From Neisseria canis (GTDB lineage: Bacteria > Pseudomonadota > Gammaproteobacteria > Burkholderiales > Neisseriaceae), in the NCBI RefSeq assembly GCF_900636765.1, contig NZ_LR134313.1, forward strand, positions 1,612,001-1,676,000: a stretch of DNA of 64,000 bases, read 5' to 3'. Shown piece by piece: positions 2,246 to 33,737 of the stretch. A model generated the notes under the pieces. It saw only the letters and a list, made by a program, of their open reading frames with translations, had not been told where the DNA came from and did not search any database. Both the position numbers and the translations under genes were made by a program. Numbering within the stretch: the first letter of the stretch is position 1; the number at the start of each line of letters is the position of its first letter.

Positions 2246-4927
<2,682 letters not shown>

Positions 4928-29213: not shown

Positions 29214-30668
29214 ATGACCCAATACACCTTAAAACAAGCCAGCGAATTGCTGCAAACCAAAAAAATTTCCGCCACCGAGCTGGCGCAAGAATACCTCAAC
29301 GCCATCGACGCCCGAAACCCCGCCATCAACGGCTACACCACCCTGAATAAAGAATTAACGCTTGCCGAAGCCAAGGCCGCCGACGAACGCTTGGCCGCCG
29401 GAAACGCAGGCATCCTCACCGGCGTACCCATTGCCTTTAAAGACATCTTCTGCCAACAAGGTTGGAGAAGCGCGTGTTCCAGCAAAATGCTCGACAACTT
29501 TGTTTCCCCCTACACCTCCACCGTCGTGCAAAACCTGCTCAACGAAGGCATGGTAACGCTCGGCCGCACCAATATGGACGAATTCGCGATGGGTTCGACC
29601 AACGAAACCTCGTTTGACGGCGCCACTAAAAATCCGTGGAATTTAGAAAACGTACCCGGCGGCTCTTCCGGCGGTTCCGCAGCCGTTATCGCCGCCCGTT
29701 TGGCACCGGCGGCATTAGGCTCCGACACCGGCGGCTCCATCCGCCAACCCGCTTCGCATTGCGGCATTACCGGCATCAAACCAACCTACGGCATCGTATC
29801 CCGTTTCGGCATGGTGGCTTACGCATCCAGCTTCGACCAAGCCGGCCCGATGGCGCAAACCGCCGAAGACTGCGCCATTCTGCTGAATGCCATGGCAAGC
29901 TTCGACGAACGCGATTCCACCAGCTTGGAACGCGCCAAAGAAGACTACACCCGCAACTTAAACCAACCCCTCAAAGGCTTGAAAGTCGGCCTGCCCAAAG
30001 AATACTTCGGCGAAGGCATGAGCGCAGACGTACAAAAAGCCATTCAAGCGGCCATCGACCTGCTTAAAGTACAAGGCGCAGAAATGGTAGAAGTGAGCCT
30101 GCCGCAAACCGAGCTTTCCATCCCCGCATATTATGTTTTGACCTCGGCCGAAGCCAGCACCAACCTATCCCGCTACGACGGCGTACGCTACGGCCACCGC
30201 GCCGCCCGATTCGGCGACTTGGAAGAAATGTACAGCAACACCCGCGCCGAAGGCTTCGGCAGCGAAGTCAAACGCCGCATCATGATCGGCACCTACGTTT
30301 TGAGCCACGGCTATTACGACGCCTACTACCTCAAAGCCCAAAAACTGCGCCGTTTGGTAACCAACGATTTTCAGACGGCCTTACAGCAATGCGACATCAT
30401 CCTCGCACCTACCGCACCCACCGCCGCGCCCAAACTGAACAGCAACATTAACGACCCCGTGCAGATGTACCTTTCCGACATCTACACCATCGCCGTCAAC
30501 CTCGCCGGCCTTCCCGCCATGACCCTGCCCGCAGGCTTCTCTTCAGACGGCCTGCCGATTGGCGTACAGTTGATTGGCAATTATTTCGCCGAAGCGAAAT
30601 TGCTGGGCGTGGCGCATCAGATGCAGTTGGAAAGTGATTGGCACAATAAAATGCCTGCCGGTGTTTAA
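29214..30668 (+). CDS. gatA: Asp/Glu-tRNA amidotransferase subunit A
   Basis: Glutamine amidase subunit that supplies ammonia. The amidase-signature Ser-cisSer-Lys triad is visible: Lys76 in IAFKDIF, Ser151 in GGSSGGSAA, and the nucleophile at about Ser175 in GSDTGGSIR. At 484 residues it is normal. It contains AGGCCGTCTGAA-type DUS near 30368 and 30545 (reverse strand), unlike the operon-end dialect. gatB lies 1.6 kb further on, separated by a three-gene cassette. Confidence 0.97.
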
Positions 30669-30703
30669 AAAGGGCTACCTGAATAATTAAGGCCGTCTGA
30701 AAA

Positions 30704-31492
30704 ATGAATTTGCGATTCAATACCCGGTTAGCAGAAGGTTACAAAAGTGCATCTCAAATTGCCCGTGTGTTGACGGAAAATTGGATGGCTGAAAATATTT
30801 ATTGTCCGAATTGTGGCTGCAAACCAATTAAAAAGGTAAGAAATAACCGACCTGTACAGGATTTTCTTTGCCATCAATGCGAAGAACAATTTGAACTGAA
30901 AAGCAAGAACGGTAAATCAGTAGGTAAAAAAATCAATGATGGCGCATACAAAACCATGATTGAGCGTATTCAGGCTGATGACAATCCGAACTTCTTTTTT
31001 CTGTCGTATAGAAAATCAGATTATTCCGTACAGCAATTAATGCTTATTCCCAAGCATTTTATTACTGCCGATATGATTATCCGCCGCAAACCTTTACCTG
31101 AAACTGCCAAACGAGCAGGATGGGTAGGTTGCACAATTGATATCGGCAAACTACCTGAAAGCGGCAAGATACTGTTGATTCACAAGCAGCAAATCATTGA
31201 GCCTGAAAAAGTACACGAGCAATGGCAGGCTAATTTGTTTTTAAGGCAGCATCAATCTAAAAGTAAGGGCTGGCTCTTGGCAATAATGAGATGTATTGAA
31301 AACCTGCCTGAGCAATTTGAGTTAAAACAGGTGTATGCGTTTGAGCAGCAATTGTCTATTCAATTTCCTGAAAACAACCACATTAAAGACAAAATCCGCC
31401 AGCAGCTGCAAATTTTGCGTGATCAAAATGTGATTGAATTTTCTGCCCGAGGACGGTATAGGAAAGTAATGTCAAATAATCCTGATTGGTAA
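30704..31492 (+). CDS. drg: DpnI-like methyl-directed endonuclease (Dam-replacing protein)
   Basis: Predicted type IIM restriction enzyme that cuts G(m6A)TC. At 262 residues it fits the family. The catalytic PD-(D/E)XK residues fall at D53, E64 and K66, the same numbers I recall for DpnI, and a Zn-type cluster uses C34, C37, C56 and C59. The C-terminal part (about 185-255) looks like the winged helix that reads the methylated adenine. The neisserial form is called the Dam-replacing gene product because it occupies strains lacking Dam. No methyltransferase is next to it, as expected. The ATG directly follows an AGGCCGTCTGAA uptake sequence, so the ribosome site is poor. Confidence 0.9.
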   Translation: MNLRFNTRLAEGYKSASQIARVLTENWMAENIYCPNCGCKPIKKVRNNRPVQDFLCHQCEEQFELKSKNGKSVGKKINDGAYKTMIERIQADDNPNFFFLSYRKSDYSVQQLMLIPKHFITADMIIRRKPLPETAKRAGWVGCTIDIGKLPESGKILLIHKQQIIEPEKVHEQWQANLFLRQHQSKSKGWLLAIMRCIENLPEQFELKQVYAFEQQLSIQFPENNHIKDKIRQQLQILRDQNVIEFSARGRYRKVMSNNPDW

Positions 31493-31508
31493 TAAAAAGG
31501 AGTTTCTA

Positions 31509-31682
31509 ATGACTAAGCGCGAAGAACTTTTAGAAAAACAACGCCAGCTTCATGTTGTGTTCAACGCATGGATGTCAGATAAAAAACAGCGTGAAGTTGT
31601 CGTGTATCGGCGTGAGAATGGCGATCTCATCCGTCATTACCCTGACGGCAAAGAAAAAGTTATTAAATATGCCGTCAAATAA
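31509..31682 (+). CDS. Small basic protein, putative antitoxin
   Basis: A 57-residue, charged protein beginning MTKREELLEKQRQLHVVF and ending [10 protein letters not shown]; family not recognised. It overlaps the following zeta-like gene by 14 bases, the usual geometry of a toxin-antitoxin pair with the antitoxin first. Ribosome site AAAAAGGAG lies eight to sixteen bases upstream. A repeated GDLIRHYPDGKEK turn is typical of small DNA- or toxin-binding proteins, but no helix-turn-helix is evident. It does not resemble the classical epsilon antitoxin. It is too short to have been picked up by simple ORF length cutoffs. Confidence 0.6.
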   Translation: MTKREELLEKQRQLHVVFNAWMSDKKQREVVVYRRENGDLIRHYPDGKEKVIKYAVK

Positions 31683-32274
31683 TTTAGCTGTTTTCTACTG
31701 TGGCACGAATGGAGCCGGTAAATCCACATTGCGTTCGTTTAATCAGGATGCTGTTCAAATCATCATTGATTCGGATCATATTGCAGCACAAATTCATCCA
31801 GTCGCACCCCGTTCAGTAGATTTTGAAGCGGGAAAAGAAGCACTCAAACTGTTTAAATTTGCTTTAGAGAAGCGTATTTCTTTTTCAATGGAATCCACTT
31901 TATCGGGGTATTCCATTGTACAGCGAATTAAAAAAGCCAAACAATGCGGGTTTTATGTGCGGCTAAATTATGTAGGTGTAGCAGATGTGGAGTTGAATGT
32001 AGAGCGTGTAGCAGCCCGTGTAGCGGCAGGCGGGCACTTTATTGACGAACAAACAATACGGCATCGTTATAAAATCAGTCGGACAAATCTGCCTTTAGTT
32101 TTGCCGTTTTGTGACGAGGTCTTCATTTACGATAATTCGGATGACAAGCCTAAAATTATTTTTTGGTTACACAATAAAAATCTGATGCAAATGGAAACCA
32201 AACTGCCTAAGTGGTGCGCAATGTTGAAACAAGAATTACTGGATATGGGTTTCATACCCGACCAATCTACCTAA
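31669..32274 (+). CDS. Zeta-type toxin-like P-loop kinase
   Basis: The 201-residue protein starts at ATG 31669 and carries a Walker A motif GTNGAGKST (residues 12-20) followed by an IIDSDHIA acidic segment (about 31-39), as in zeta toxins and related kinases. A later basic helix ([22 protein letters not shown], read as separate motifs) contains arginines of the lid type. Zeta toxins phosphorylate UDP-N-acetylglucosamine and poison wall synthesis; whether this one does is inference. The 57-residue upstream protein is its likely partner. Together with the endonuclease it forms a cassette inserted between gatA and gatB. Confidence 0.75.
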
Positions 32275-32309: not shown

Positions 32310-33737
32310 ATGACCTGGGAAACCGTAATCGGACTGGAAATCCACGTCCAATTAAATACCAAATCCAAAATTTTCAGCGGTGCTTCCACCGCTTTCGGTG
32401 CCGAGCCGAATGCACATGCCAGCGTGGTGGAATGTGCTTTGCCGGGCGTGTTGCCGGTGATGAACCGCGAGGTGGTGGAAAAGGCTATCAAGCTCGGTTT
32501 GGCTTTGGATGCGAAAATCAACCAAAAAAACGTGTTCGACCGTAAAAACTACTTCTACCCCGATTTGCCGAAAGGCTATCAAATCAGCCAATTGGATTTG
32601 CCGATTGTGGAACACGGCAAGTTGGAGATTGTGGTGGGCGACGAAGTCAAAACCATCAATGTTACGCGTGCGCACATGGAAGAAGATGCGGGCAAATCGG
32701 TGCATGAAGGCTTGAGCGGTGCAACGGGCATCGACCTCAACCGCGCCGGTACGCCTCTGCTGGAAGTGGTTTCCGAACCGGAAATGCGTTCCGCCGCCGA
32801 GGCTGTGGCTTATGCTAAAGCTTTGCACGGCTTGGTAACGTGGCTGGATATTTGCGACGGCAATATGGCGGAAGGCTCGTTCCGTATCGATGCCAACGTA
32901 TCGGTGCGCCCGAAAGGCCAGCAGGAATTCGGTACTCGTCGTGAAATCAAAAACTTAAACTCTTTCCGCTTCTTGGAACAGGCGATTAATTATGAAGTGG
33001 AAAGCCAAATTGAGATTTTGGAAGACGGCGGCAAAGTGCAGCAAGCGACAATGCTGTTTGACCCCGATAAAGGCGAAACCCGCGTGATGCGCCTGAAAGA
33101 AGACGCGCACGACTACCGCTATTTCCCCGACCCCGATTTATTGCCGGTGATGATTTCAGACGGCCAGTTACAAAAAGCGAAAGACGAAATGCCTGAGCTG
33201 CCGTCTGAAATGGCACAGCGTTTCGTAGCCGATTTCGGCGTGAGCGACTACGATGCCCGTTTGTTAACCGCCAGCCGCTCTCAAGCCGCTTTCTTTGAAA
33301 CCGCCGCCCAAGCCAGCGGACAAGGTAAATTGGTAGCGAACTGGATGAACGGCGAATTGGCCGCTACATTGAACAAAGAAGGTTTGAGCCTGTCTGAAAG
33401 CCCGATTCAGGCCGACCGCCTGGCCGGATTGGTGGCGAAAATCGCCGATGGCACATTAAGTAACAAACTCGGCAAACAGGTGTTTGAAGCGATGTGGGGC
33501 AGCGATTTGGATGCCGAAGCCATCATCGAACGCGACGGTTTGAAACAGATGACCGACACCGGCGCGATTGAAAAAATTATCGACGAAGTGTTGGCAAATA
33601 ACGCCAAATCGGTGGAAGAATTCAAAGCCGGTAAGGAAAAAGCCTTCAATGCGCTGGTGGGCCAAGTGATGAAAGCCAGCAAAGGCAAAGCCAATCCGCA
33701 GCAGGTGCAGGAATTGCTGAAAGCGAAACTGGCTTGA
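32310..33737 (+). CDS. gatB: Asp/Glu-tRNA amidotransferase subunit B
   Basis: Kinase/amidotransferase subunit that activates the mischarged tRNA. It begins [21 protein letters not shown], the conserved GatB opening, so ATG 32310 is used instead of the longer frame from 32211 (475 residues). Further signatures are [10 protein letters not shown] and the [14 protein letters not shown] segment, and a C-terminal YqeY-like tail (from about residue 330) ends [11 protein letters not shown] wadDUS lies near 33388 and AG-type DUS cores near 33160 and 33200. The separation from gatA by a defence cassette means it is probably still transcribed by read-through or a promoter near 32280. Confidence 0.97.

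What the first reader, a model, noticed from the sequence alone, without database searches (positions are those of the whole stretch)
30704..32274. Restriction plus toxin-antitoxin cassette inserted between gatA and gatB
A DpnI-like G(m6A)TC endonuclease, a 57-residue protein and a zeta-like kinase occupy the space between two essential amidotransferase genes. Placing defence genes inside an essential operon could make them hard to lose, and could guard against Dam-methylated DNA. Combination of the Dam-replacing gene with a zeta-type pair is not one I recall.
Basis: partly seen in the sequence, partly recalled or inferred. Interest (0 to 1): 0.75.

Follow-up and report, generated by a model that had tools for sequence, protein, structure and literature searches.

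The report
Swappable defence cassette between two genes
Between two essential Neisseria genes lies a slot whose contents differ from species to species; here it holds an enzyme predicted to cut DNA methylated at GATC, plus a small gene paired with a kinase gene that together look like a toxin-antitoxin pair.

Summary
The three genes are real and lie between gatA and gatB as reported. (1) 30704-31492 encodes a full-length DpnI-family (Drg/NmeBII-type) nuclease. (2) 31509-31682 encodes a 57-aa protein. (3) The kinase is best started at 31669, overlapping gene 2 by 14 nt. The triad is not a unit: in 46 Neisseria genomes drg is in this interval in 7, the small-kinase pair in 4, both in 2. The gap runs from 51 to 3463 bp in the 43 genomes with gatA in reach, and other cargo includes Dam-type methylase systems (6 of 46). 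So it is an exchange slot of the "minimal mobile element" sort, the opposite of "hard to lose". The pair itself is tight: 33 of 33 loci from one genome scan (Neisseria, Pasteurellaceae) have the small gene upstream; 0 of 23 intact kinases lack an intact small gene, while 9 of 10 broken kinases keep one. In Pasteurellaceae it lies between holC and valS in 23 of 29. Best reading: a DpnI-type restriction gene plus an autonomous, divergent zeta-type kinase with a non-epsilon candidate antitoxin. Toxicity, neutralisation and methyl-dependent cutting by this copy are inferred. Structure prediction never ran.

The parts
29214..30668 (+). gatA, upstream edge of the slot
   Evidence: Pfam Amidase 4.1e-150
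30690..30701 (+). AGGCCGTCTGAA, a neisserial DNA uptake sequence variant (name AG-DUS recalled), 2 nt before the drg start
   Evidence: 14 copies in the window, both strands; G025, G027, G040 and G041 also have it just after gatA, G040 and G041 with other cargo behind it
30704..31492 (+). drg: DpnI-family endonuclease, 262 aa
   Evidence: D53, E64, K66 and Cys 34, 37, 56, 59 in register with DpnI; their roles are recalled
31509..31682 (+). 57-aa protein with an HYPDG motif, candidate antitoxin
   Evidence: no antitoxin family found; dN/dS 0.06
31669..32274 (+). zeta-toxin-family P-loop kinase, 201 aa, candidate toxin
   Evidence: Pfam Zeta_toxin 4.1e-08; PezT 2p5t_B E 0.002 with profile A5; K18, D36, E75, T77 invariant in 22 of 22 rows
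32310..33737 (+). gatB, downstream edge of the slot
   Evidence: Pfam GatB_N 2.7e-117 and GatB_Yqey 4.1e-53

Best explanation
The gatA-gatB interval is a minimal-mobile-element slot: cargo is replaced by homologous recombination in the conserved flanks after natural transformation, probably helped by an uptake sequence at the left edge. Here the slot holds two independent defence-type modules. Module 1, drg, encodes a DpnI-type enzyme expected to cut GATC only when its adenine is methylated, restricting DNA from Dam-plus cells and phages grown in them; the host must lack GATC methylation. Module 2 is a two-gene unit: a 57-aa protein and, overlapping it, a zeta-family kinase that would phosphorylate a UDP-sugar or similar metabolite and stop growth when not held by the 57-aa protein. 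Shown here: gene content, homology, slot turnover, tight pairing, drg/Dam exclusion. Inferred: methyl-dependent cutting by this copy, kinase toxicity and substrate, neutralisation by the 57-aa protein, and recombination as the route of exchange.
For: Slot: gatB in 46 of 46 Neisseria genomes; gatA within the fetched stretch in 43; gap 51-3463 bp. Directly upstream of gatB: drg in 7, Dam-like plus DpnA-like methylases in 6, many other cargoes. G000, G045 and G002, with gatB 99% identical, hold three different cargoes. In 20 fetched genomes of other Neisseriaceae genera: 8 near-empty (42-102 bp), 7 with cargo, 5 without gatA in reach. Drg: full-length DpnI match; the gonococcal homologue cut only methylated DNA (PMC4269198, passages). 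Exclusion: Dam at 270 bits or more in 0 of 19 genomes with a long drg match and 14 of 27 others, Fisher p 1.6e-4; at the curated cut-off 2 of 19 and 17 of 27, p 6e-4. Pair: small gene upstream in 10 of 10 Neisseria loci and 33 of 33 scan loci, 4 loci shared by both sets; kinase intact in 23 of 33, small gene in 32 of 33, no intact kinase without an intact small gene; in G322 an intact 57-aa gene stands before gatB with no kinase match. Active site: K18, D36 and T77 align with PezT K45, D66 and T117; D66 is PezT's catalytic base and the zeta Thr118 contacts UNAG (PMC3062530, passages).
Against: Neither toxicity nor cutting was tested. The kinase is far from characterised zeta toxins: Pfam 33 bits, PezT E 0.002 with A5, and no zeta or PezT chain among hits with P0002 (E up to 1) or A3 (E up to 10). 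In the wider family a small ORF directly upstream is no commoner than at control loci, 9 of 28 against 9 of 25, and in 274 same-class genomes the kinase profile hits 41 but the small-protein profile only 4, two of them marginal: the pairing is a trait of this clade, not of the family. The commonest weak match of the small proteins is to Tcp10_C (10 of 21 members, best 0.0003), which does not suggest an antitoxin. Breakage mainly of the kinase partly reflects its greater length. The exclusion p values ignore relatedness. The genome has a D12-class adenine methylase of unknown specificity elsewhere (55 bits, under the Dam cut-off); if it methylated GATC the restriction reading would fail. No recombination event was observed.
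Confidence: 0.65

Rival explanations
1. A functional three-gene defence system: Drg restricts, and the zeta-like kinase is a linked abortive-infection arm that fires when restriction fails.
For: Both modules lie together in G000 and G027. Other restriction-type genes sit beside the pair elsewhere: Dam-like and DpnA-like methylases in G007, a C5 methylase and a HinP1I-type nuclease in Avibacterium paragallinarum L153, inside holC-valS.
Against: The partner differs each time; 5 of 7 slot drg genes have no pair and 2 of 4 slot pairs have no drg. How often a restriction gene neighbours the pair in Pasteurellaceae was not measured: one search scanned ten proteins from nine of the 29 loci.
Confidence: 0.1
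2. The kinase is a metabolic small-molecule kinase and the 57-aa protein an accessory subunit; not a toxin-antitoxin pair.
For: Only weak similarity to zeta toxins; low dN/dS; no consistent upstream partner in the wider family.
Against: Patchy distribution (9 of 46 Neisseria genomes), several chromosomal slots, frequent breakage (10 of 33) with the small gene kept, and relatives on 423 plasmid records are unlike a housekeeping gene.
Confidence: 0.2
3. The pair works chiefly as an addiction module that holds the cassette in place.
For: 0 of 23 intact kinases lack the small gene, and small genes persist after kinase loss.
Against: Near relatives by gatB hold other cargo in the slot, and kinases are often lost.
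Confidence: 0.25

Closest known systems
Drg / NmeBII of pathogenic Neisseria and DpnI of Streptococcus pneumoniae
   Same: DpnI catalytic and C-terminal HTH domains over the full length; strong Dam absent where drg is present.
   Different: At gatA-gatB. A 2014 study found 21 drg hits in wholly sequenced neisserial genomes, in all cases beside leuS (PMC4269198, passages).
Minimal mobile elements of Neisseria (Saunders and Snyder 2002; Snyder 2007; known here only through PMC4269198; originals not read)
   Same: Cargo between conserved flanking genes, often restriction genes, with near-empty and alternative states.
   Different: gatA-gatB as such a site did not turn up: phrase plus gatB, 0 papers; 20 of 824 papers listed, none with both the phrase and gatA; 2 papers listed, not opened. 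The library is open-access only and the 2007 catalogue was not available.
Pneumococcal DpnI / DpnII alternative cassettes (recalled)
   Same: One locus holds either a DpnI-type nuclease or a Dam-like plus DpnA-like methylase system: 7 and 6 of 46.
   Different: Other flanking genes; the nucleases with the methylases are MutH-like in G002 (9.7e-06) and G041 (1.3e-11), in G016 and G040 by clustering with G002, and DpnII-like in two pieces in G015.
epsilon/zeta, PezAT and gonococcal ng_epsilon1/ng_zeta1
   Same: P-loop kinase with Lys, Asp and Thr positions matching PezT; small gene first.
   Different: Very low similarity; the 57-aa partner matches no epsilon or PezA family. ng_zeta1 is itself described as a separate subfamily (PMC5923241, passages).
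Zeta-family genes annotated in Pasteurellaceae, such as H. influenzae HI1395
   Same: HI1395 is listed as zeta toxin family after HI1394, an ASCH gene (PMC3877243, passage), like L158 here; pezT genes are listed in H. parasuis (PMC6211672, passages).
   Different: Annotation only in what I saw; sequence identity of those genes with the present family was not checked. That HindIII genes adjoin HI1394 is recalled.

Membership tests
DpnI / Drg endonucleases | DpnI catalytic domain plus DpnI_C HTH domain | tested here: met
   Pfam 5.8e-81 and 1e-31; PDB 4esj 303 bits over residues 1-255
DpnI / Drg endonucleases | Catalytic Asp, Glu, Lys and zinc cysteines | tested here: met
   D53, E64, K66 and Cys 34, 37, 56, 59 aligned with DpnI; roles recalled
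DpnI / Drg endonucleases | Cuts GATC only when adenine-methylated | not testable with these tools
   Reported for the gonococcal homologue (PMC4269198, passages)
DpnI / Drg endonucleases | Host lacks GATC methylation | tested here: inconclusive
   No match over the Dam cut-off in the own genome; one D12 methylase at 55 bits of unknown specificity
Minimal mobile element | Different cargo between the same conserved flanks in relatives | tested here: met
   46 Neisseria genomes; gap 51-3463 bp in the 43 with gatA in reach
Minimal mobile element | No mobility gene of its own or flanking repeats | tested here: inconclusive
   The three genes are not mobility genes; repeats were not searched. Short gatB 5' duplicates lie upstream in G016 and G018
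zeta toxins (PF06414) | Curated Pfam score | tested here: met
   33.4 bits against cut-off 22.3
zeta toxins (PF06414) | Walker A Lys, catalytic Asp, sugar-contact Thr | tested here: met
   K18, D36, T77 by profile alignment to PezT (E 0.002), invariant in 22 of 22 rows
zeta toxins (PF06414) | UDP-sugar kinase activity and toxicity | not testable with these tools
   none
epsilon/zeta or PezAT toxin-antitoxin system | Epsilon or PezA antitoxin family partner | tested here: not met
   No such Pfam hit for P0003 or for any of 21 members scanned; so not filed as epsilon/zeta

The most novel reading that the evidence does not exclude
The 57-aa HYPDG proteins are a new antitoxin family that neutralises a divergent zeta-type sugar kinase, carried as a swappable cassette at housekeeping-gene slots in two bacterial families known for natural competence; and gatA-gatB is a population switch between DpnI-type and Dam/DpnII-type GATC systems, a neisserial parallel to the pneumococcal Dpn locus.
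Probability: 0.42. Interest if true: 0.6.

Novelty: new variant of a known kind. Interest (0 to 1): 0.45.

Why it matters
If right, one neisserial locus alternates between opposite GATC strategies (destroy methylated GATC, or methylate GATC and destroy the unmethylated), which bears on which species can exchange DNA and phages. The tightly conserved small gene plus kinase pair is a concrete, easily tested candidate for a new antitoxin family across Neisseria and Pasteurellaceae, and shows how pairs annotated only as 'hypothetical plus zeta toxin family' travel between slots, sometimes beside restriction genes.

Tried and rejected
Triad as a conserved unit: rejected (2 of 46). Essential-operon anchoring: rejected, the slot varies and can be near-empty. 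Kinase start at 31552: rejected from conservation. Promoters or terminators of the cassette: scans found no more than shuffles. Phage or plasmid origin: relatives on 423 plasmid and 4 phage records, all under 60% identity; no direct source. A small partner for the whole kinase family: rejected (9 of 28 against 9 of 25 D12-methylase control loci); two of the nine upstream ORFs look Phd/YefM-like by eye only. Enrichment of the pair with restriction genes: not claimed; few and related cases. Direction of transfer: the kinase tree puts the gatA-gatB kinases with Pasteurellaceae ones and apart from N. elongata and N. dentiae, but key forks are weak and long branches meet. drg tree: the 7 gatA-gatB copies fall in one supported group with two copies at other sites (beside tyrS and mutS); 2 changes needed. 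Structure of kinase and small protein: never run, server full; so no fold search.

Rows dropped or limits: one of 29 class-level loci had its upstream off the contig. A3 holds 21 of the 33 scan loci, leaving out 10 broken and 2 near-duplicate ones. Only 20 of the 37 other-genus Neisseriaceae genomes were fetched. The 14 genomes with Dam at 270 bits or more include G007, whose gene carries a stop, and G031, an incomplete genome that also has a short drg fragment with a stop; this fragment is not counted among the 19 drg genomes. Of those 19, G005 is partial and G034 carries a stop. The 270-bit line was chosen after seeing the gap between 277 and 186 bits; the result at the curated cut-off is given beside it. 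The genome scan used two peptide patterns from A1, so its 33 loci are a biased sample. Family names of the 29 non-Neisseria loci come from the tree output for those in it and from the genus name for the rest. Neighbour genes other than those were named by eye, leuS among them.

Full report
What is there. On the + strand between gatA (29214-30668) and gatB (32310-33737) lie three open frames: 30704-31492 (262 aa), 31509-31682 (57 aa) and a kinase frame ending at 32274. Conservation places the kinase start at 31669, so the last 14 nt of the 57-aa gene overlap it. GC is 39.0, 41.4 and 40.4% against 56.2% for gatA and 52.2% for gatB. One pair of genomes underlies these values.

The nuclease. Protein 1 matches both DpnI domains (5.8e-81, 1e-31), the PADLOC methyl-directed type II enzyme (4.2e-121) and DpnI itself in the PDB (1.7e-89 over residues 1-255), with D53, E64, K66 and Cys 34, 37, 56 and 59 in register (roles recalled). 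The gonococcal homologue was reported to cut only methylated DNA, like DpnI (PMC4269198, passages read). That paper found 21 drg hits in wholly sequenced neisserial genomes, in all cases beside leuS; here it is at gatA-gatB.

The slot. gatB was found in 46 of 46 Neisseria genomes. I fetched up to 5 kb upstream in the 45 others and measured the gap. gatA was within reach in 43 (not in G004, G010, G016); the gap runs from 51 bp (G031) and 202 bp (G003) to 3463 bp (the 619 bp printed for G018 is to a gatB fragment, not to gatB). drg is in the interval in 7 (G000, G011, G020, G025, G027, G029, G044), the small-kinase pair in 4 (G000, G001, G007, G027), both in 2; G010 has a decayed small gene there. 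Six have a Dam-like methylase and a DpnA-like N6_N4 methylase upstream of gatB (G002, G007, G015, G016, G040, G041), four of these with a MutH-like nuclease and one with a DpnII-like nuclease in two pieces (G016 and G040 by clustering). Other cargo includes DUF535, Gly_transporter and Vsr genes. Genomes with gatB 99% identical to the window's (G045, G002) carry different cargo. Left of the cargo, G000, G025, G027, G040 and G041 share the gatA tail with AGGCCGTCTGAA; behind it G000, G025 and G027 have drg, G040 and G041 something else. Of 20 genomes fetched from other Neisseriaceae genera, 8 have a 42-102 bp gap, 7 have cargo, 5 have no gatA within the stretch. This is the pattern called a minimal mobile element. 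Three paper searches did not turn up this site (listings only), but the library is open-access only and the 2007 catalogue was not in it.

Two strategies for GATC. Among 46 genomes a long drg match occurs in 19 and Dam at 270 bits or more in 14, with no overlap (p 1.6e-4); at the curated cut-off the overlap is 2 of 19 (p 6e-4). These p values ignore kinship and the 270-bit line was set after seeing the data. In G014 and G019 a dam 3' remnant overlaps the end of drg, matching the known dam replacement. The own genome has no Dam over the cut-off, but one D12 methylase at 55 bits whose specificity I could not tell. That one slot holds DpnI-type or Dam-type systems resembles the pneumococcal Dpn locus (recalled).

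The pair. Kinase relatives occur in 9 of 46 Neisseria genomes, 10 loci, each with the small gene upstream. A scan of a collection of 84,980 species genomes with A1 gave 33 loci, 4 Neisseria and 29 Pasteurellaceae. All 33 have the small gene upstream, in L167 run together with the kinase by a frameshift. The kinase is intact in 23 and broken or truncated in 10; the small gene is intact in 32; no intact kinase lacks it and 9 of 10 broken kinases keep it. Length alone would favour kinase breakage, so this is support, not proof. In G322, of another genus, an intact 57-aa gene (86% identical) stands before gatB, behind Dam-like, DpnA-like and MutH-like genes (the last three by eye against G002), with no kinase match. 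In Pasteurellaceae the pair lies between holC and valS in 23 of 29 loci; in L153 a C5 methylase and a HinP1I-type nuclease fill the rest of that slot. In other Neisseria it lies between an Obg GTPase and a cysteinyl-tRNA synthetase (L161) or a pfkB-family kinase and an epimerase (L163). So the pair is found as a unit in several slots.

How it may work. With a broadened profile the kinase matches PezT at E 0.002; K18, D36 and T77 fall on PezT K45, D66 and T117. D66 is PezT's catalytic base and the zeta Thr118 touches the sugar nucleotide (PMC3062530, passages). All three are invariant in 22 of 22 close rows. I infer a metabolite kinase that stops growth, held by the 57-aa protein. The 57-aa protein matches no antitoxin family, so this is not filed as epsilon/zeta; its relatives' commonest weak match is Tcp10_C (10 of 21, best 0.0003), perhaps through the YPDG motif. 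Against a general rule: in 28 more distant same-class kinases an upstream small ORF is no commoner than in controls (9 of 28, 9 of 25), and in 274 same-class genomes the kinase profile hits 41 while the small-protein profile hits 4: the own genome, one strong (1.5e-22) and two marginal. Five of five plasmid relatives inspected, of 423 records, had a small ORF directly upstream; in a search of just these five one resembled the family clearly (1e-7) and one weakly (0.003).

Verdict. Real observation; the interpretation needs turning round: the site is a place of exchange, not of shelter. The parts are of known kinds; what I did not find described is the gatA-gatB site for drg, the alternation of GATC systems there, and the conserved non-epsilon partner of a zeta-like kinase.

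Noticed in passing
L185 (G322), 3125-3298: Solitary intact 57-aa gene directly before gatB with no kinase match, behind a Dam-type methylase system.
   Followed up: partly
L153:3829-6305: Small-kinase pair followed by a C5 methylase and a HinP1I-type nuclease between holC and valS in Avibacterium paragallinarum.
   Followed up: partly
L143:3944-5182: Kinase frame continues into about 200 extra residues with no Pfam match (Muribacter muris).
   Followed up: no
G016:C1:315841-315972 and G018:C1:1559459-1559575: Short duplicated gatB 5' fragments upstream of the slot cargo, perhaps traces of how cargo entered.
   Followed up: no
window:27559-28587 (-): Intact mreB (MreB_Mbl 3.2e-130) next to the gat genes; may bear on the cell shape of this Neisseria.
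   Followed up: no
window:33992-34816 (-): Integrase-core (rve_3, 4.9e-15) transposase-like gene just downstream of gatB.
   Followed up: no
window 31509-31682 and relatives in A4: 10 of 21 small proteins match Pfam Tcp10_C weakly (best 0.0003), perhaps a shared YPDG beta-repeat.
   Followed up: no
L216:1143-1487 and L220:1180-1494 (L220 reversed): Distant zeta-family kinases preceded by ORFs that look Phd/YefM-like by eye.
   Followed up: no
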